Source of the DNA: Brevundimonas sp. EYE_349
GTDB lineage: Bacteria; Pseudomonadota; Alphaproteobacteria; Caulobacterales; Caulobacteraceae
Reading direction: 5' to 3'
DNA length: 64,000 nt
Assembly: GCF_023147505.1 (NCBI RefSeq)
Contig: NZ_JAHXPB010000001.1
Coordinates: forward strand, 620,001-684,000
Shown here: positions 3,982 through 11,449 of the stretch, piece by piece
How positions within the stretch are numbered: the first letter of the stretch is position 1
How the letters are laid out: each line of letters opens with the position of its first letter
Notes under the pieces: model-generated
The model's database searches: none
Told to the model about the DNA's origin: nothing
What the model saw: the letters and a program-made list of their open reading frames with translations, nothing else
Made by a program: the position numbers and the translations under genes

Positions 3982-4713
3982 ATGAACCCGTCCGCCACGC
4001 TCCTGGTCGTCGATGACGATCGCGACATTCGCAGCCTGCTGGCCGAACGGCTGGAAGGCGAAGGCTACGGCGTGATTCAGGCCGCAGACGGCAAGGCCAT
4101 GCGGCGCGCCCTGTCAGACAAGACCGTGGATCTGGTGATCCTGGACCTCAACCTTCCGGGCGAGGATGGCTTGACCCTATGTCGCGACCTGCGCGCCAGC
4201 TCGGCCGTTCCCGTCATTATGCTGACCGCGCGCGGCGAGGCCATCGACCGGATCGTGGGACTGGAGATGGGCGCAGACGACTATCTGGCCAAGCCGTTCG
4301 AGCCGCGCGAGCTGTTGGCCCGTATCCGAAGCGTTCTGCGACGCACCCGGGCGCTGCCGGCCAATCTGGAGCCCACGACGCAAACCCGCGTCCATTTCGC
4401 TGGTTGGACGCTGGACCGCGAACGCCGCCTGCTTAGCGCGGCCGACGCACGCTTGGTCAGTCTGTCCAGCACCGAGTTCGACCTGCTCGACGCTCTGGCC
4501 GCCCACGCCGGCCGGGTGCTGAGCCGGGAGCAGCTTCGCGCTCTAGCCGCCGCGTCCGACACCGACGACCGCGCCATAGACCTCAGGGTCAGCCGGCTCC
4601 GTCACAAGCTGGGCGACGACGCCCGGTCGCCCGAACTGATCAAGACTGTGCGCAATCTCGGCTATATGCTTGCTGCGACGGTTTCGAGCCCTGACGCGGC
4701 GCCCGAGGGATGA
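3982..4713 (+). CDS. OmpR-family two-component response regulator
   Basis: A 243-residue regulator with an N-terminal receiver (acidic pocket DDD at residues 11-13, phospho-acceptor D55 in LVILDLNLPGEDG, conserved Lys in AKPFEP) and a C-terminal winged helix (FDLLDALAAHAGRVLSREQL and IDLRVSRLRHKLGDD). It should be a DNA-binding transcription factor activated by the kinase encoded next, whose ATG overlaps this stop. The start is uncertain: in-frame ATGs at 3916, 3925 and 3982 are possible and none has a strong ribosome site; 3982 gives a standard N-terminus. The overlap argues for coupled translation with the kinase. Confidence 0.9.
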   Translation: MNPSATLLVVDDDRDIRSLLAERLEGEGYGVIQAADGKAMRRALSDKTVDLVILDLNLPGEDGLTLCRDLRASSAVPVIMLTARGEAIDRIVGLEMGADDYLAKPFEPRELLARIRSVLRRTRALPANLEPTTQTRVHFAGWTLDRERRLLSAADARLVSLSSTEFDLLDALAAHAGRVLSREQLRALAAASDTDDRAIDLRVSRLRHKLGDDARSPELIKTVRNLGYMLAATVSSPDAAPEG

Positions 4714-6104
4714 CGCGCGACACCCTGGCGCGTCGAATCTTCCTGATCCTGCTGATCGGGGCCGCCCTGTCGGCGGCGGCGGCGCTCTGGCTGTCCGACA
4801 GCCTCTATCGCCAGCGACAGGCCGACCAGGATCGCAGCCAGGCGGCGGCGCGCATCGCCGCCGCGCTTCCCGTCCTGAGGTCAGGCGCCGATGTCAGGGG
4901 CGTGGCGCGCGCGGCCGAAGGGATCGTTCCGGGGTCCGCCGACGTCGCCCTGACGCGACGATTGGCCGAAACCCTGGGCCAGGGCCAGGCCGTGGCCTAT
5001 CAGACGCGAGCGGCGGATTGCGTGCCGCCTCCGCCTGCTCATCTGCCCGGCCGGACGCCGCCCGGACCGCCCCTGCCCCCGCTGTCCGTAGCGCCCGGAA
5101 GCACGGCGCCCGCCGCGCCCCACCCGCCTGTCGGTCCCGCCGAGCAGAACTGCCGCCTGATCGTCGCGCAGACGGGGCAAGGAACGCTGGCCTTGACCAC
5201 CGCCCTACCCCCGCCGCCCGCGCCCCTGGCCGCCGACCGCTTGGGACTGGTGTTTCTGGGCGTGATGGCCCTGGCCGCCGCCCTTCTGGCCTGGATCGCG
5301 GCCCGACTGGCGGTTCAGCCCCTGCGCAGCCTAAGCACGGCCGCAGCGGCGCTTGGAGACGACCTGGACCGTCCGCCGCTTCCTCTCGCCGGCCCTGAGG
5401 AACTGCGCGATGCGGCCGCAGCCTTCAACACCATGCAGATGCGCCTGAAGGCCGCGCTTTCCGACCGCACGCGAATGCTGGCCGCCATCACCCACGACCT
5501 GCAGACGCCGCTGACCCGGATGCGGCTTCGGCTCGACAAGGTGACGGACGCCGAACTGCGCGCGCGTCTGCTCGCCGATTTCGCCGCCACACAGGTGCTG
5601 ATCCGCGAAGGTCTGGACCTGGCGCGCGAGGTGGAGGCGAGCGAGCCGACCGGACAGGTCGATCTGCCCTCCCTGGTGTCCGCCCTGGTGGAAGATATGG
5701 CCGACGCCGGCCTGCCGGTTCGCGTAATCGAAACCTGCGCCGCCGTCGCGCCGACCCGGCCTCAAGCGCTTCGTCGCGCTCTGGGCAATCTCATCGACAA
5801 CGCCGTTCAGCACGGGGGGGCGGCGGACGTCGCCCTGATCCGTGACCCGAGCGGAGATATCGCCATCACGGTGCGCGATCACGGTCCGGGCGTACCGGAG
5901 GATCAGCTAAACGCCGTGCTGGAGCCATTCCATCGCCTGGACGCCTCGCGATCACGCGACAGCGGCGGCGCGGGCCTCGGCCTCACCATCGCCCAGCGCA
6001 TGGCGGCCCGCAGCGGCGCCAGGCTGACGCTGTCCAACCACCCCGACGGCGGCCTGGAAGCGCGTCTTGTGTTCGCGCAACTCGGCCCGCAGAATCAGGT
6101 TTGA
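4710..6104 (+). CDS. Two-component sensor histidine kinase
   Basis: A 464-residue membrane kinase. TM1 spans about residues 9-31, a periplasmic segment of about 145 residues contains a proline-rich stretch and two cysteines, TM2 is at about 178-202, and a HAMP linker follows. The dimerisation box has His262 in ITHDLQTPLTRMR. The ATPase domain has an N box (LGNLIDNAVQHG), G1 (DHGPGVPE) and G2 (GGAGLGLTIA). It overlaps the regulator gene by 4 bases. The signal is unknown. A proline-rich secreted protein is encoded divergently next to the pair, which may or may not be functionally linked. Confidence 0.9.
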   Translation: MTRDTLARRIFLILLIGAALSAAAALWLSDSLYRQRQADQDRSQAAARIAAALPVLRSGADVRGVARAAEGIVPGSADVALTRRLAETLGQGQAVAYQTRAADCVPPPPAHLPGRTPPGPPLPPLSVAPGSTAPAAPHPPVGPAEQNCRLIVAQTGQGTLALTTALPPPPAPLAADRLGLVFLGVMALAAALLAWIAARLAVQPLRSLSTAAAALGDDLDRPPLPLAGPEELRDAAAAFNTMQMRLKAALSDRTRMLAAITHDLQTPLTRMRLRLDKVTDAELRARLLADFAATQVLIREGLDLAREVEASEPTGQVDLPSLVSALVEDMADAGLPVRVIETCAAVAPTRPQALRRALGNLIDNAVQHGGAADVALIRDPSGDIAITVRDHGPGVPEDQLNAVLEPFHRLDASRSRDSGGAGLGLTIAQRMAARSGARLTLSNHPDGGLEARLVFAQLGPQNQV

Positions 6105-6156: not shown

Positions 6157-6768
6157 TTAACTGCCGTAACCCCGGCCGCCGCCGCCGAAACCGCCGCGCG
6201 AGACGACCGTGGTGCGGCTCTGCACCCGCGTCGGAGCCTGGCGCGCCACATCGCCGTGTTCGCGCGCATTGGTCAGGGTCTTGCCGGTGCGATAGTCGCG
6301 ATAGGCGTAACCGCCGCCGTAGCCGTTCGACAGCCGCCCCTCCCGGTCGCGATACAGCGGTCCCCCGCCGCGATAGCCGCCGTTCAGCATCTGGCTGACG
6401 ATGAAGCCGGTCAGCAGCGGGCTGAAGAAGGAGCCCCCGTTATTGTTCGGCTGGCATTGCGAAGGCCCCCACTGGCCCTCGCATTCCTCGCGCGTGGCGT
6501 AACGGGGCGCGGTCTTGGCGGCCTCCCGCTGGGCCTTGGCGAGGGCGGCGTCGCACTCGTTATCGGGAATGTCGTTGGCGGCCTTGCACTCGTCCAGCGA
6601 TTGATAGGCCAGGGTCGGTTCAGGTTCGGGCGCCGGAACGCGTTGAGGCGAGCCGCAGGCGGCTAGCGAAAAGCTGGCGGTCGCCATCAGGCTGCTGACA
6701 TGAAGCACGCGCGAGCGTTTCAGTCGGCGCATGGTCTCGGTCTTGGGCAGGTCCTTGGGATCGGTCAT
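6157..6768 (-). CDS. DUF1190 (YgiB/YjfM-like) lipoprotein
   Basis: A 203-residue protein with an N-terminal basic region, a hydrophobic stretch and a lipobox SLAAC (Cys38), so probably membrane-anchored. The family pattern is clear: YQSLDECKAANDIPDNECDAALAKAQ, YATREECEGQWGPSQCQ, then a Gly/Tyr/Arg-rich tail with RDREGRLSNGYGGGYAYRDYRTG. Function is unknown, but YgiB/YjfM-type genes travel with an ATP-grasp partner (YgiC/YjfC), which is encoded nearby at 9439-10605. It is the last gene of the left arm, directly after the DUF350 gene. Confidence 0.85.
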   Translation of the reverse strand: MTDPKDLPKTETMRRLKRSRVLHVSSLMATASFSLAACGSPQRVPAPEPEPTLAYQSLDECKAANDIPDNECDAALAKAQREAAKTAPRYATREECEGQWGPSQCQPNNNGGSFFSPLLTGFIVSQMLNGGYRGGGPLYRDREGRLSNGYGGGYAYRDYRTGKTLTNAREHGDVARQAPTRVQSRTTVVSRGGFGGGGRGYGS

Positions 6769-6772
6769 GGGT

Positions 6773-7186
6773 TCACGACGTCATGCAGGCGGCGTTGAGC
6801 AGGCCGACGCAGATGGAGATGGAGGCCAGATAGACGGCCGCGGCGATCTCGCCCGCCTCGATGCGGGCGACCAGGTTGCGAAAGGCCATGCGGCTGATGG
6901 TGACGAACACCACGATCTGGATCACGCCGGCCAGCAAGGCCCAGGCGGCGAACTCCATCAGGCTGACGGTGTGCGAAAGGGCCGAGGCCAAAGGCAGGAC
7001 ATAGCCGATCAGCGCGCCGCCCAGCGCGATGGCGGCGGCCGTGTTGCCTTCGCGGATCAGCGTATGCTCGTGATAGGGCGTGACCCACTGGTAGATCAGT
7101 TTGAAGGCCAGGGTGAAGGCGCCCGCCATGGCGAAGGCGATCAGGAAGGCGATCGCCCCCTGCTGAAACACGAACCAGTCGAACAT
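6773..7186 (-). CDS. DUF350 membrane protein (YjfL-like)
   Basis: A 137-residue, strongly hydrophobic protein with about four predicted transmembrane segments. The family pattern YQWVTPYHEHTLIREGNTAAAIALGGALIGYVLP identifies DUF350 / YjfL. Its biochemical function is unknown. Only 25 bases separate it from the DUF2491 gene and 4 from the DUF1190 gene, so the three form one operon. Genes of this family recur with PspA homologues and ATP-grasp ligases, as here, which suggests a membrane component of an envelope stress module. Confidence 0.85.
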   Translation of the reverse strand: MFDWFVFQQGAIAFLIAFAMAGAFTLAFKLIYQWVTPYHEHTLIREGNTAAAIALGGALIGYVLPLASALSHTVSLMEFAAWALLAGVIQIVVFVTISRMAFRNLVARIEAGEIAAAVYLASISICVGLLNAACMTS

Positions 7187-7211
7187 CGGTCTTGCCCCTC
7201 GGATTGCGCGG

Positions 7212-7859
7212 TCAGGCGCGGAACTCGGCCATTTCCAACGGAATGCCGATCATGATTTCATGCGTGGTGTCGCCGCCGTCAGGCTGCTGCTCCAGAGCCA
7301 GCATCAGTTCGCGGCCGCCGCCCAGTTCGCGCGCATACAACATGCAGGTCTGAAAGATCTTGGCATAGGGCGTGGTCGCGGCGCGGTCGTCCCAGATCGT
7401 CTCCCATAGGGTGACGGGCGGCTGGATGGCGTCGCTCTCGGCGAACCAGAAGCGGGGATAGTCGGGCAACTCTTCGGCCGCGCCGTGAAACACCGGCGCC
7501 GACAGCCGGTCGCGCCAGATTCGGCGTTCGCGCTCGCCCGGCGGATAGGCTGAGGTCCATGGCACGAACAGGCTGAAGTCATAGCTTTCCAGACCCGCCT
7601 CGTCATCGCTCATGGCCTGAAGCATGACGTGGTCGTCGGTGTAGAAGCGATGCACGAACTGACCGCTGTCCAGACTGACCAAACCTTGCGCCGAGATGTC
7701 CAGCACGTCGCGATCCAGGGTGAAAGGCGTCTCTCCGCCCAGCCGGCGCCAGGACAGCGGGTCCAGCGACACGGTGCGGCCCACTGTGATGTTGCGCACC
7801 GTCGCCAGCCGATTGGCGGGCGCGGCCTTCTCCGACGATCCGAAAAGCTTCTTGAACAT
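7212..7859 (-). CDS. DUF2491 family protein (YjfK-like)
   Basis: A 215-residue soluble protein starting MFKKLFGSSEKA, with the family features LDPLSWRRLGGETPFTLDRD, FYTDDHVMLQAM, and ERRIWRDRLSAPVFHG. No signal peptide, membrane segment or catalytic motif is visible. It is the first gene of the leftward arm and is divergent from the DUF2170 gene across 138 bases. In enterobacteria the homologue yjfK sits between the PspA-like yjfJ and the DUF350 gene yjfL; the same partners occur here in a rearranged order. Function unknown. Confidence 0.85.
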   Translation of the reverse strand: MFKKLFGSSEKAAPANRLATVRNITVGRTVSLDPLSWRRLGGETPFTLDRDVLDISAQGLVSLDSGQFVHRFYTDDHVMLQAMSDDEAGLESYDFSLFVPWTSAYPPGERERRIWRDRLSAPVFHGAAEELPDYPRFWFAESDAIQPPVTLWETIWDDRAATTPYAKIFQTCMLYARELGGGRELMLALEQQPDGGDTTHEIMIGIPLEMAEFRA

Positions 7860-7953
7860 GGGCGACTATCTAGGCCCGATCCACGCCGACGGCGAGCGGA
7901 CAGCGACGATGCGACCGAATGAGGCGGTTCATGGCGTGACATTCCGTCCGATC

Positions 7954-7994
7954 TTGCGTCAAGTCAAGCGTTCATGTTACACGTTACATGTAAC
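7954..7994 (+). promoter_or_regulatory. Putative promoter and 12-bp palindromic operator of the yjfI-pspA-yjfC arm
   Basis: GTTACATGTAAC at 7983-7994 is a perfect 12-bp palindrome, with a further half-like TGTTAC at 7975-7980. A promoter-like pair TTGCGT (7954-7959) and TTACAC (7977-7982), 17 bases apart, would place the transcript start inside the palindrome. The ATG at 7998 lacks a Shine-Dalgarno, so a leaderless or very short leader is possible. Repressor identity is unknown. Confidence 0.4.
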
Positions 7995-7997
7995 GAT

Positions 7998-8678
7998 ATG
8001 CCAAACGACACCTTGCCCTCTTCCGCCGCCACCGACCGCATCCGAGCGTGGCGACAGGCGCGCCGTGAGGCGGGCCTGGTGAAGCTGGAGCTTTGGGTGC
8101 CAGCGGCCGCCCGCGACGACGTCAAGGCGGCCGTGCGCGCCATCGTCACAGATTCCACGCGCGGGCCGCAGCTTGCCCAACGCCCGCGCCGCCCCACTTC
8201 CGATTCCATCACCCCCGGAGACGACCATCAAATGGACGCCGTGATCGAAACCCCCTGGACCGTGCCGACCATCAAGGCGGCGCTGGACGGGTCCACCCTG
8301 TTGCGCGAGGGCGAAATGACCCTGCGCGTGGTTGAGGGCGCCGAGCCCGTTCTGTTGGCGACCATGCATGAGTACGGCGACCTGCCGGTCTATCTCAGCG
8401 TCGGCGGCGCCCAGATCGTCTGCTCCGTGCTGCTGTGGCCCGTGTCGGAACAGACCGACCGCCACGCCTTCAACGAGTTCCTGCTGAAGGCCCAGCGAGT
8501 AGTGCCCCTGTCCAACTTCGCCATCACCAACGTCGGCGGCGAGGATGTGTACGAATTGATGGGCGAACTCTCTTGCAAGACGACGCTGCAGACCATCCTG
8601 ATCGAACTGCGCACCCTGGCCGAGAATGCGATCGACGCCACCGAACTGCGTGAAACCTTCGGCGCCGACGCCGCCTGA
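7998..8678 (+). CDS. DUF2170 family protein (YjfI-like) with N-terminal extension
   Basis: A 226-residue protein. The C-terminal part (about 85-226) is the YjfI/DUF2170 domain, with REGEMTLRVVEG, YLSVGGAQIVCSVLLWPVSE, FNEFLLKAQRVVPLSNFAI and VYELMGELSC. The N-terminal 65 residues carry a basic helix (RIRAWRQARREAGLVKLELWVP) like those in ribbon-helix-helix proteins, so this copy is longer than the short enterobacterial form. Either ATG at 7974 or 7998 is possible; neither has a ribosome site. It leads the rightward operon yjfI-pspA-yjfC. A DNA-binding role for the N-terminal region is inference. Confidence 0.8.
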   Translation: MPNDTLPSSAATDRIRAWRQARREAGLVKLELWVPAAARDDVKAAVRAIVTDSTRGPQLAQRPRRPTSDSITPGDDHQMDAVIETPWTVPTIKAALDGSTLLREGEMTLRVVEGAEPVLLATMHEYGDLPVYLSVGGAQIVCSVLLWPVSEQTDRHAFNEFLLKAQRVVPLSNFAITNVGGEDVYELMGELSCKTTLQTILIELRTLAENAIDATELRETFGADAA

Positions 8679-8694
8679 TCCCGGAAGACCGACC

Positions 8695-9435
8695 ATGTCC
8701 ATGCTCAGAAAACTGTCCGCCCTGTTTCGCGGCACGGCCCACGATGCGGCCCAGGGCGTCGTCGACGCCAATGCGCTGAAGATCCTCGACCAGGAAATTC
8801 GCGACGCCGACAACGCCCAGGGCAAGGCCCGCGATGATCTGGCCGGCCTGGTGGCGCGCCGCCGCATGGCCGAAAACGAAATGACCAGCTTCCGCGACCA
8901 GATCGCCAAATACGAAAGCTCGGCCCGCACCGCCCTGGGGCAGGGCAAGACGGACCTGGCGCGCGAAGTCGCCGGCCGCATCGCCGAGCTGGAGGTCGAG
9001 ATCACCAGCCGCGCCCCCCTGATCGAGGACATGAAGACGGCCGAGACGCGCCTGCGCACCGCCATCGCCTCTACGGACCAGAAGATCGAGACGCTTCGTC
9101 GCGAGATCGACATCGTCAAGGTCAACGATTCCGTCCAGCGCGCCCAGACCTCGGTGGCCTTGAACTCGGCCGGCGCCCAGTCGCGCATCGGCTCGGCCGC
9201 CGACAGCCTGCAACGTATCAAGCAACGTCAGGCGATCCAGGAAGAGAAGCTGAACGCCAGCCAGGCGCTGGAAGATCGCCGCACCGGCGCCGACCTGGAC
9301 GCAAAGCTGCGCGAGGCCGGCATCCTGCCCGGTCATTCGTCGGCCGACGACGTCCTGGCCCGCCTCAGCCAGCCGGACGTGACGGTGGTCACGCCGCGGA
9401 TAGGCCAATCTGCGCCCGACAAAGACCAGGCCTGA
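8695..9435 (+). CDS. pspA: PspA/IM30 family protein (YjfJ-like)
   Basis: A 246-residue, largely alpha-helical coiled-coil protein of the PspA/IM30/Vipp1 (ESCRT-III-like) superfamily. It starts MSMLRKLSALFRGTAHDAAQG, followed by long heptad-rich helices (DQEIRDADNAQGKARDDLAG; EKLNASQALEDRRTGADLDAKL). These proteins oligomerise on the inner leaflet of the cytoplasmic membrane and counter membrane damage. The ATG at 8695 has a GGAAG ribosome site and lies 16 bases after the DUF2170 stop. There is no pspF, pspB or pspC nearby; the partners are those of the yjf cluster, so YjfJ is the closer analogue than classical PspA. Confidence 0.88.
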   Translation: MSMLRKLSALFRGTAHDAAQGVVDANALKILDQEIRDADNAQGKARDDLAGLVARRRMAENEMTSFRDQIAKYESSARTALGQGKTDLAREVAGRIAELEVEITSRAPLIEDMKTAETRLRTAIASTDQKIETLRREIDIVKVNDSVQRAQTSVALNSAGAQSRIGSAADSLQRIKQRQAIQEEKLNASQALEDRRTGADLDAKLREAGILPGHSSADDVLARLSQPDVTVVTPRIGQSAPDKDQA

Positions 9436-9438
9436 TCC

Positions 9439-10605
9439 ATGGAGCGTCTGCGCTTCGATCCCCGCACAGACTGGGACGCCAAGGCCGAGGAGCTCGGCTT
9501 CACCTGGCGCCACACCGACGGCAAACCCTATTGGGACGAGACGGCGGCATACGCCTTCTCCTTGGCCGAGATCGAAGAGGGGATCGAGGCGCCGACCGAG
9601 GAACTGCACGGCCTGTGCCTGGAACTGGTCAACGAGGCCGTCCAGTCCGAACGGCTGATGGAGCAACTCGATATTCCCGAGACCATGCGGGACTATGTGG
9701 CCGACAGCTGGAAGCGGGGCGATCCCTCCCTCTATGGCCGGTTCGACTTCGCCTACGACGGCGCGGGTCCGGCCAAGCTGTACGAATACAACGCCGACAC
9801 CCCGACCAGCATCTATGAGACGGCGGTGTTCCAGTGGTTGTGGCTGGAAGATCAGATCAAGGCCGGCGCCCTGCCCGCCGATGCGGATCAGTTCAACAGC
9901 CTGCATGAGAAGCTGGTCGATCGATTCCGCGCCATCTTCCCGGACGGCGGCTTCGTGCATTTCGCCTCGGACGCCGACTTCGTCGAGGACCGTCAGACGG
10001 TGCGCTTCCTTGAAGACCTGGCTCAGCAGGCCGGGCTGGAGCCCCAGTTCGTCGCCATCGACCAGATCGGCCTGAACGCAGACGGCCGGTTCGTGGATCA
10101 CGACAACTGGATCATCCAGGCGCTGTTCAAACTGTATCCGTGGGAGCAGATGCTGCGCGACGAATACGCCGCGCCCTTGCCTACCGCCGACGTGACGGTG
10201 TTGGAGCCGGCGTGGAAGAGCATCCTGTCCAACAAGGCCATCCTGCCCCTGTTGTGGGAACGCCATGCCGGTCACCCCAACCTGCTGGAATCCTATTTCG
10301 AGGGCGATCCGGCCGAAAGCGCGCTGGGATCGTCCTATGTCCGCAAGCCCCTGTTCTCGCGCGAAGGCGACAATGTCGAACTGATCGACCAGGGCCAAAC
10401 CGCCGCAGAGGTCGTGGACGGCGGCTATGGCGAAGGCCGCTACATCCGCCAGGCCCTGCACAATCCGCCGAACTTCGACGGCAACCACGTGATCGTCGGG
10501 TCGTGGGTGGTCGGAACGGCACCGGTGGGAATCAGTCTGCGCGAGGATATCGGCCGCATCACCCGCAACACCTCCCGCTTCGTACCGCACTTCATTCGGG
10601 GCTGA
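9439..10605 (+). CDS. Glutathionylspermidine synthase-like ATP-grasp ligase (YjfC/YgiC-like)
   Basis: A 388-residue homologue of the C-terminal synthetase domain of bifunctional glutathionylspermidine synthetase, without the amidase half. Family motifs include YGRFDFAYDG, KLYEYNADTPTS, FQWLWLEDQ, EPAWKSILSNKAILPLLWE, YVRKPLFSREGDNV, and HVIVGSWVVG. Such enzymes use ATP to form an amide between a carboxylate and an amine; glutathionylspermidine itself is not proven for YjfC/YgiC, and a peptide or protein target has been proposed for the group. It starts 3 bases after the pspA stop, so it is cotranscribed with it. Confidence 0.87.
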   Translation: MERLRFDPRTDWDAKAEELGFTWRHTDGKPYWDETAAYAFSLAEIEEGIEAPTEELHGLCLELVNEAVQSERLMEQLDIPETMRDYVADSWKRGDPSLYGRFDFAYDGAGPAKLYEYNADTPTSIYETAVFQWLWLEDQIKAGALPADADQFNSLHEKLVDRFRAIFPDGGFVHFASDADFVEDRQTVRFLEDLAQQAGLEPQFVAIDQIGLNADGRFVDHDNWIIQALFKLYPWEQMLRDEYAAPLPTADVTVLEPAWKSILSNKAILPLLWERHAGHPNLLESYFEGDPAESALGSSYVRKPLFSREGDNVELIDQGQTAAEVVDGGYGEGRYIRQALHNPPNFDGNHVIVGSWVVGTAPVGISLREDIGRITRNTSRFVPHFIRG

Positions 10606-10724: not shown

Positions 10725-10800
10725 GCCGGCTTAGCTCAGTTGGTAGAGCGCCAGTTTTGTAAACTGGATGTCGCGGGTTCGATTCCTGCAGCCGGCACCA
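10725..10800 (+). tRNA. tRNA-Thr (anticodon TGT)
   Basis: A 76-base cloverleaf: acceptor stem GCCGGCT/AGCCGGC, D arm TAGCTCAGTTGGTAGAGC, anticodon stem CCAGT/ACTGG with loop TTTGTAA (anticodon TGT at 10758-10760), T arm GCGGGTTCGATTCCTGC, discriminator A and an encoded CCA end. It reads ACA and, by wobble, ACG. Confidence 0.97.
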
Positions 10801-10822: not shown

Positions 10823-11449
10823 ATGCCCGACACCACCAACAAGCTGGGCCACAAGATCGGCGCGCGCGGCGGCAGAACCCGCCAGGCGATCCTCGATGCG
10901 ACCCGACGCCTGTTGAACGCAAGGCATTACGGCGAGATTCGGGTCGCCGACCTGGCCTCGGAAGCCGGTGTGTCGCCATCGAATTTCTATACCTATTTCA
11001 AGACGGTCGAAGAGCCGGTTCTGGCGTTGTGCGAAGTTGCGGCGACCGATTTTCAGGGCTTGGCGACCTATTTTCAGGCCGATTGGCCGGGCGACAAGGC
11101 CTTCACCATCGCCCGCGCCTTCATCCTGGACGTCATGGCGATCTGGCGCAGCCACGGTCAGGTTCTGCGGGTCGAGCATATGCTGGCGGACAATGGCGAC
11201 GCCGCCTTCGTGGAAAGCCGCGTGCGCCGTCTGCGCCGGCTGCACCTGGCCATTGAGCGCCGCGTCGCCCAGGCCCACGCCAGCGGCCTGCACCCCAAGG
11301 ACTACAATCCCCGCCTGGCCTCGTACCAGATCGCCTCCATCGCCGAATCGACCGCGGCCAGCTTCGATCTGTTGCGCCGAGCGGATACGCCGGAGGCCAT
11401 CCTGGACACGGCGGCGATCATCGTCGTCAAGCTGACGACCGGGCGCTAG
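10823..11449 (+). CDS. TetR family transcriptional regulator
   Basis: A 208-residue regulator with an N-terminal helix-turn-helix (TRQAILDATRRLLNARHYGEIRVADLASEAGVSPSNFYTYFKTVEE) and a helical ligand-binding domain rich in Ala and Arg. Family members repress transport or catabolic genes and are released by a small ligand. It starts 22 bases after the tRNA and is convergent with the prepilin peptidase gene, overlapping it by 4 bases. No adjacent transporter or enzyme points to its target, and no palindrome stands out at its own start. Confidence 0.88.
   Translation: MPDTTNKLGHKIGARGGRTRQAILDATRRLLNARHYGEIRVADLASEAGVSPSNFYTYFKTVEEPVLALCEVAATDFQGLATYFQADWPGDKAFTIARAFILDVMAIWRSHGQVLRVEHMLADNGDAAFVESRVRRLRRLHLAIERRVAQAHASGLHPKDYNPRLASYQIASIAESTAASFDLLRRADTPEAILDTAAIIVVKLTTGR

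What the first reader, a model, noticed from the sequence alone, without database searches (positions are those of the whole stretch)
6157..10605. PspA / ATP-grasp envelope module rearranged into two divergent operons
Six genes matching the enterobacterial yjfI-J-K-L-M-C set lie together, but as two divergent operons: DUF2491-DUF350-DUF1190 leftwards and DUF2170-PspA-ATP-grasp rightwards. The combination of a PspA-like membrane protector, a glutathionylspermidine-synthase-like ligase without its amidase, a four-helix membrane protein and a lipoprotein suggests a system that makes or attaches an amide-linked compound during membrane stress. The product is not established for this group. Retention of all six genes despite a changed order argues that they work as one unit.
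Basis: partly seen in the sequence, partly recalled or inferred. Interest (0 to 1): 0.65.

Follow-up and report, generated by a model that had tools for sequence, protein, structure and literature searches.

The report
Self-regulating PspA membrane-stress gene cluster
A known set of six bacterial membrane-stress genes begins with a protein that looks like its own DNA-binding switch, with a matching conserved DNA site beside it, which could explain how such clusters are turned on and off.

Summary
The six genes are there in the stated divergent layout and belong to a published kind of system: the CesT/Tir (DUF2170)-PspA dyad joined to an ATP-grasp ligase, DUF2491, DUF350 and DUF1190. "Rearranged" holds only against E. 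coli: all 34 divergent loci with the fused regulator described below have this order. The ligase is 48% identical to E. coli YjfC, reported as a peptide-spermidine ligase.

Missed so far is regulation. The DUF2170 protein carries a ~50-residue N-terminal helix-strand-helix domain resembling MazE-like antitoxins. Upstream of such fusions lie palindromes of the form TTACATGTAA: 17 of 23 non-redundant fused loci (16 if the window does not represent its own cluster) against 0 of 47 unfused. Other, unfused clusters encode a separate small protein, probably a published ribbon-helix-helix factor, and carry another palindrome, GACATAWTATGTC (20 of 22). In a Pseudomonas aeruginosa-like genome the domain lies in a 5' extension of bacA that the crystallised BacA lacks; a bacA transposon insertion raises the other bac proteins 6- to 13-fold.

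I read the locus as a PspA system under a one-piece autorepressor whose chaperone-like half probably senses PspA. DNA binding and PspA control are inferred, not shown.

The parts
7998..8678 (+). MazE-like/RHH-like N-terminal domain (about residues 10-52) fused to DUF2170 (CesT/Tir-like chaperone fold); proposed autorepressor, BacA/YjfI type
   Evidence: Pfam DUF2170 E 2.5e-47; NCBIfam BacA model matched over 10-201 of 206, 152.5 bits, below its cut-off of 300. N-terminal part: Pfam MazE-like hit by 14 of 25 members, best E 0.0027; hhalign 91.3% against at most 1.0% for 8 other families. Model: helix 9-23, helix 35-51 (numbered from 8001), then the DUF2170 fold, best match 8q8o
7971..7992 (.). 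proposed operator, imperfect 22-bp palindrome TTCATGTTACACGTTACATGTA; TTACATGTAA at 7984-7993
   Evidence: letters and place checked; site with at most 1 mismatch to TTACATGTAA upstream in 22 of 30 Caulobacterales-type and 18 of 21 other fused loci; strict and wider counts; one exact match of GTTACNCGTTACATG in the host genome, here
7860..7997 (.). 138-bp divergent intergenic region holding the proposed operator
   Evidence: consensus scan found no sigma-70-type promoter and no terminator
8695..9435 (+). PspA/IM30 family protein (YjfJ type), only PspA match in the genome
   Evidence: Pfam E 2.2e-46; one PF04012 match in G000
9439..10605 (+). ATP-grasp acid-amine ligase, YjfC/YgiC type, without amidase domain
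   Evidence: Pfam GSP_synth E 1.4e-148, profile 1-371 of 371; 48% identical to YjfC over 388 aa; PDB 7uk6 E 1.4e-118
7212..7859 (-). DUF2491 (YjfK family), first gene of the left arm here
   Evidence: Pfam E 1.1e-51
6773..7186 (-). DUF350 membrane protein (YjfL type)
   Evidence: Pfam E 8.7e-37
6157..6768 (-). DUF1190 protein (YjfM family), probable lipoprotein; lipobox-like SLAAC read by eye
   Evidence: Pfam E 2.8e-35

Best explanation
A PspA-type membrane-protection cluster with its own repressor built into its first gene. The product of 7998-8678 binds the palindrome at 7971-7992 through its N-terminal domain, as a dimer, and represses both arms from the shared 138-bp region. Its DUF2170 half, a type-III-chaperone-like fold, binds PspA. 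When the membrane is stressed PspA is drawn to it, the PspA-repressor balance changes, the repressor leaves DNA and all six genes are made: PspA coats the membrane, the DUF350 and DUF1190 proteins act in the envelope, and the ligase makes a spermidine amide. Shown here: gene set, domain architecture, palindrome conservation and its association with the fused domain. From papers: raised bac proteins in a bacA insertion mutant, and peptide-spermidine ligase activity of E. coli YjfC (title only). Inferred: DNA contact, PspA as the signal and its direction, control of the left arm, and the link between ligase product and membrane stress.
For: It resembles MazE-like antitoxins; PHROG 'transcriptional regulator' is hit by 13 and 'transcriptional repressor' by 2 of 25 members, weakly, best E 0.014 and 0.028. 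(2) Palindromes: 65 matches (at most 1 mismatch) to TTACATGTAA in 7,650 bp upstream of 51 fused genes, 2 in the other 748,671 bp of those loci; unfused 0 in 13,350 bp upstream, 16 in 1,059,196 bp elsewhere. Non-redundant at 70%: at least one T[TC]AC[AG][TC]GT[AG]A in 17 of 23 fused (0.07 expected from shuffles), two in 12 of 23 (0.000); unfused 0 of 47. With other choices of representatives 16 to 18 of about 24 fused and 0 or 1 unfused. (3) The site varies with the domain: 8 of 8 sites of KHETW-type strands are TCACGCGTGA, 8 of 8 of KRELW/KRELY are TCACATGTGA, 50 of 50 of KKEVW are T[TC]ACATGT[AG]A. (4) Parallel case: unfused loci with a separate small gene, taken to be the RHH factor of PMC11237479, carry GACATAWTATGTC in 20 of 22, against 2 of 24 unfused without it and 0 of 17 fused. 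(5) Other bac proteins rise 6.1- to 13.5-fold in a P. aeruginosa bacA mutant (PMC10948618); a BacA-BacB (PspA-like) complex is predicted with probability 0.981 (PMC13092808, passage). (6) One PspA and no PspC in this genome.
Against: The motif was defined on the same loci and widened after seeing Pseudomonas variants, so the counts describe and do not test. In Caulobacterales-type loci the strict motif is found in only 4 of 30 (window, L071, L072, L146); the rest have near-matches (22 of 30 with at most 1 mismatch, 28 of 30 with at most 2). The window represents its cluster; another choice gives 16 of 23. Six of 23 fused representatives lack it (L089, L134, L143, L144, L145, L249); one unfused locus of 90, L210, has a site 278 bp upstream. 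The window's palindrome alone is not unusual (43 of 200 shuffles reach it). Fold assignment is weak: no further helix after the second, N-terminal pLDDT 61-69, no PDB match below E 1.2, no resemblance to the separate RHH protein (0.1%). The bacA mutant is a MAR2xT7 transposon insertion with a gentamicin cassette, no complementation is mentioned, so read-through from the cassette could raise downstream genes. The bacA authors propose a sigma-54 promoter. BacA-BacB binding rests on a prediction and on unpublished results cited in PMC10948618.
Confidence: 0.65

Rival explanations
1. The N-terminal domain is not DNA-binding but an adaptor (for PspA, membrane or another protein), and the palindrome belongs to another regulator.
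For: Weak fold evidence; DUF2170 proteins without the domain are common and E. coli works without it.
Against: The palindrome tracks the fused domain (17 of 23 against 0 of 47), varies with its sequence type and is otherwise nearly absent from the same loci.
Confidence: 0.18
2. BacA-type proteins regulate only through protein contacts, like ExsC, acting on a sigma-54 promoter, as the P. aeruginosa authors suggest; the rise of bac proteins may even come from the transposon cassette.
For: DUF2170 fold matches ExsC and other type III chaperones; authors' sequence-based sigma-54 site; transposon mutant without mention of complementation.
Against: By length and position the crystallised 146-residue chain starts at an internal ATG; in a genome 99% identical to it the frame starts 59 codons upstream, after two palindromes 22 bp apart.
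Confidence: 0.12
3. One reading: an amide-product system for membrane stress whose unusual order matters.
For: Ligase and membrane genes are together in all 79 ligase loci examined.
Against: The order is ordinary for these bacteria; gene set and polyamine link are published.
Confidence: 0.05

Closest known systems
CesT/Tir(DUF2170)-PspA operons with ATP-grasp ligase, 'third group' of Ravi et al. 2024 (PMC11237479; passages seen)
   Same: Same families: DUF2170, PspA, GSP-synthetase-like ligase, DUF350, DUF1190, DUF2491
   Different: No channel gene here; divergent order; the passages I saw mention an RHH gene only as a separate last gene of another group, and no fusion or operator
P. aeruginosa bacABCDEF (PMC10948618: abstract, sections 27, 34-36, first part of the discussion, passages; PMC2587700: passages)
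   Same: Same fused architecture followed by a PspA-like gene, palindromes upstream; proposed negative control by BacA
   Different: In 14-kb stretches of three BacA-like loci (L142, L246, L265) only PspA of ten partner families is found, no ligase arm; the crystallised BacA lacks the N-terminal 59 residues
E. coli yjfI-J-K-L-M-C
   Same: Same six families; yjfIJKL up in heat-evolved strains with a promoter deletion (PMC12492005, passages)
   Different: Co-linear; YjfI has no N-terminal domain and no site of this form was found upstream of it
Classical Psp (PspF-PspA-PspBC; recalled)
   Same: PspA as effector; in both, PspA would signal to the regulator
   Different: No PspC found; a proposed repressor fused to a chaperone-like domain instead of the PspF activator

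Membership tests
CesT/Tir-PspA-ATP-grasp operon (Ravi third group) | DUF2170 + PspA + GSP-synthetase-like ligase + DUF350 + DUF1190 + DUF2491 together | tested here: met
CesT/Tir-PspA-ATP-grasp operon (Ravi third group) | potassium channel gene | tested here: not met
   none between the arms; the L013 channel protein finds no match in G000 (no positive control). Variable trait: 49 of 79 ligase loci have it, so I do not treat it as a bar
Classical Psp system | PspC | tested here: not met
   PF04024 no match in G000; rings in 7 of 14 control genomes
Classical Psp system | PspF activator | not tested
   no search made
Peptide-spermidine ligase YjfC/YgiC | full-length homology | tested here: met
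   48% over 388 aa, PDB 7uk6 and 7uk8
Peptide-spermidine ligase YjfC/YgiC | spermidine ligase activity | not testable with these tools
   needs an assay
MazE-like / ribbon-helix-helix DNA-binding domain | sequence similarity to MazE-like antitoxins | tested here: inconclusive
   hhalign 91.3% over 28 columns with two sequences; 14 of 25 members hit PF11455, best E 0.0027; window protein below the Pfam cut-off (13.1 of 22 bits)
MazE-like / ribbon-helix-helix DNA-binding domain | strand-helix-helix fold pairing as a dimer | tested here: inconclusive
   monomer model shows helix, unpaired stretch, helix; no second helix after the strand-helix pair
BacA (NF050185) | match above the curated cut-off | tested here: not met
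   152.5 of 300 bits, match 10-201 of 206: same architecture, not the equivalog

The most novel reading that the evidence does not exclude
A branch of Psp systems uses a one-protein switch: a DNA-binding domain fused to a PspA-binding chaperone domain, so that PspA leaving for the membrane directly changes repression. Elsewhere the same wiring is made by a separate repressor with its own operator, perhaps acting in trans on a second cluster in one genome (L199/L200). BacA of P. aeruginosa was crystallised without its DNA-binding part.
Probability: 0.45. Interest if true: 0.75.

Novelty: new variant of a known kind. Interest (0 to 1): 0.6.

Why it matters
How DUF2170-PspA clusters are controlled is open: the bacA work suggests strong negative control but names no DNA-binding part in the passages I saw. 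A conserved domain plus an operator that varies with it turns this into a simple binding experiment and suggests a Psp response without the classical regulators. It also suggests revisiting BacA with the full-length protein.

Tried and rejected
Rejected: that the divergent order is a local rearrangement. Rejected: that the arms occur independently in near relatives; among 25 same-genus genomes DUF2170 occurs in 10, and DUF2491 in the same 10 plus G023, an 82% complete assembly in 390 contigs. Rejected as proof: the palindrome of the window by itself. Led nowhere: promoter scan; Rfam, only the tRNA at 10725-10797; PDB search with the N-terminal profile; Pfam on two of the separate RHH proteins, no family, so that label rests on PMC11237479 and on my reading; paper search for Caulobacter PspA (13 papers, listing only). 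On an RHH fused to DUF2170 or on these palindromes I saw no paper in the searches; most subscription journals and preprints are not held. Rows dropped: loci with an identical DUF2170 domain merged (140 distinct, 171); 5 loci under 6 kb left out; L020 and L021 left out throughout.
Full report
OBSERVATION. The six genes exist as described. The rightward arm begins at ATG 7998; 8001, used in my early calls, is one codon late. The intergenic region is 138 bp. A tRNA (10725-10797) and a TetR-type regulator (10823-11449) follow the right arm; a histidine kinase gene (4710-6104) lies beyond the left one.

KNOWN SYSTEM. Ravi et al. 2024 (PMC11237479, passages) describe DUF2170 as a CesT/Tir-type chaperone domain next to PspA and list larger operon groups; the third has the ATP-grasp ligase, DUF350, DUF1190, DUF2491 and a potassium channel, and they link it to polyamines. 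The ligase here is alike to E. coli YjfC over its full length (48%; PDB 7uk6). [quoted passage not shown] the paper is not held. In heat-evolved E. coli yjfIJKL is strongly up, with a promoter deletion (PMC12492005, passages).

LAYOUT. Of 135 loci of at least 6 kb: 34 fused and divergent with the ligase on the PspA arm; 8 unfused and divergent with the ligase on the other arm; 37 co-linear with the ligase (4 fused, 33 unfused); 30 of the spermine-synthase/DUF4178 type (26 with a separate RHH-type gene); 26 without ligase (12 fused; of 14 unfused, 12 with that gene; one of the other two, L094, ends with its contig). All 79 ligase loci have DUF2491, DUF350, DUF1190 and PspA; they were found through DUF2170, so this does not count ligase operons without it. 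In samples of 398 Pseudomonadota genomes DUF2170 occurs in 50 and DUF2491 in 29, 25 of them shared. The dyad is thus portable and the ligase arm mostly depends on it. In 11 of 30 Caulobacterales-type loci a channel gene lies between the arms; the window lacks it.

FUSED DOMAIN. The window protein has about 80 residues before DUF2170. Across 25 diverse members the first ~50 residues share a pattern, from the consensus: YQRxxRxRLRExGLVKxEVWIxPE. One R is invariant; one G, K, E and W are nearly so. Pfam MazE-like is hit by 14 of 25 members (best E 0.0027); every other family by at most 4. Profile comparison gives 91.3% with two MazE-like sequences and at most 1.0% with eight other families, among them the separate RHH-type protein (0.1%). 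AlphaFold2 on 17 sequences gives helix 9-23 and helix 35-51 with an unpaired stretch between, pLDDT 61-69, then the DUF2170 fold; the fold search finds BacA 8q8o first (E 4.5e-12), and, above E 0.001, ExsC, YbjN-family proteins and type III chaperones. That the domain is RHH-like and pairs its strand in a dimer is my inference.

OPERATOR. Upstream of fused genes I saw repeated ACATGT-centred palindromes. First count, 70% non-redundant: ACATGT in 11 of 17 fused (0.88 expected) and 2 of 46 unfused (2.9 expected). Density: 65 sites upstream against 2 elsewhere in the 51 fused loci, many of them closely related Brevundimonas; 0 upstream and 16 elsewhere in unfused loci. After adding relatives of BacA: 81 fused and 90 unfused distinct domains, 23 and 47 representatives; one site in 17 of 23, two in 12 of 23, 0 of 47. 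The window was taken as representative of its cluster; without that, 16 of 23; over 200 random choices 16 to 18 of about 24, unfused 0 or 1. Over all distinct loci: 50 of 81 fused, 1 of 90 unfused (L210, 278 bp upstream); Caulobacterales-type 4 of 30, other fused 46 of 51. Caulobacterales-type loci mostly carry a variant, TTCATGTTACGCGTTACATGAA or close to it, a perfect 22-bp palindrome in L146 (0 of 200 shuffles reach it). Of 13 spacings between neighbouring sites in representatives, 6 are 22-24 bp, 4 are 42-52, the others 15, 40 and 54. The pattern was widened, so these counts are not an independent test; unfused loci and shuffles are the controls. Sites vary with strand type: KHETW 8 of 8 sites TCACGCGTGA; KRELW/KRELY 8 of 8 TCACATGTGA; KKEVW 50 of 50 T[TC]ACATGT[AG]A; KHESW and KHEAY mixed TCACATGTGA/TCACGTGTGA. 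Related genomes are counted many times, so this is a few independent changes. In the host genome the only exact match to GTTACNCGTTACATG is here; one more place has 2 mismatches, and the reversed control pattern has 5 places at that tolerance.

PARALLEL. The palindrome GACATAWTATGTC was seen by eye in eight unfused loci before I looked for a regulator gene. With at most 1 mismatch it occurs in 20 of 22 unfused representatives with the separate gene, 1 of 17 unfused with the ligase and without that gene, 1 of 7 others (a 2.3 kb fragment), and 0 of 17 fused. The exception with the ligase, L199, is from the same genome as L200, which has the gene. Two of these proteins have no Pfam match; calling them RHH follows PMC11237479 and my reading of the sequence.

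BACA. In genome G965, whose DUF2170 is 99% identical to 8q8o, the frame codes for 206 residues and has an internal ATG at codon 60 (MTEARVW), which leaves 146 residues after its Met, the length of the crystal chain, with W at position 6 as in that chain. NCBIfam gives BacA 206 positions. PMC2587700 gives PA3732 as 16 kDa, which fits the short form. Two palindromes lie 22 bp apart before the upstream start, with a weak TTGAAG-17 bp-TAGTGT pair read by eye. PMC10948618 reports BacB-F up 6.1- to 13.5-fold in the sessile mutant and proposes negative control; a text search for DNA binding found nothing. The mutant is a transposon insertion with a resistance cassette and no mention of complementation, so this support is soft.

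MECHANISM AND LIMITS. The simplest reading is an autorepressor with a PspA-sensing half. DNA contact is unproven, the direction of the PspA signal is open (co-repressor lost to the membrane, or repressor pulled off by PspA), and control of the left arm rests on position only. The promoter scan found nothing.

Noticed in passing
L199 and L200 (genome G818): Two DUF2170 clusters in one genome; one has the separate RHH-type gene, both have the GACATAWTATGTC palindrome, suggesting control in trans.
   Followed up: partly
L090-L093, L096, L097, L101 (Jiella, Aurantimonas, Fulvimarina): Unfused divergent clusters with the ligase on the other arm and a shared upstream stretch around GATGTAGAAC seen, not studied.
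   Followed up: no
L013 5929-6972 and similar loci: Channel gene between the two arms in 11 of 30 Caulobacterales-type loci, missing in the window.
   Followed up: partly
L246 5249 onwards: bacA-type frame starts 59 codons upstream of the start implied by the 16 kDa protein and the crystal chain.
   Followed up: yes
genus of the window (G000-G024): Cluster present in only 10 of 25 same-genus genomes, so gained or lost more than once or incompletely sampled.
   Followed up: no
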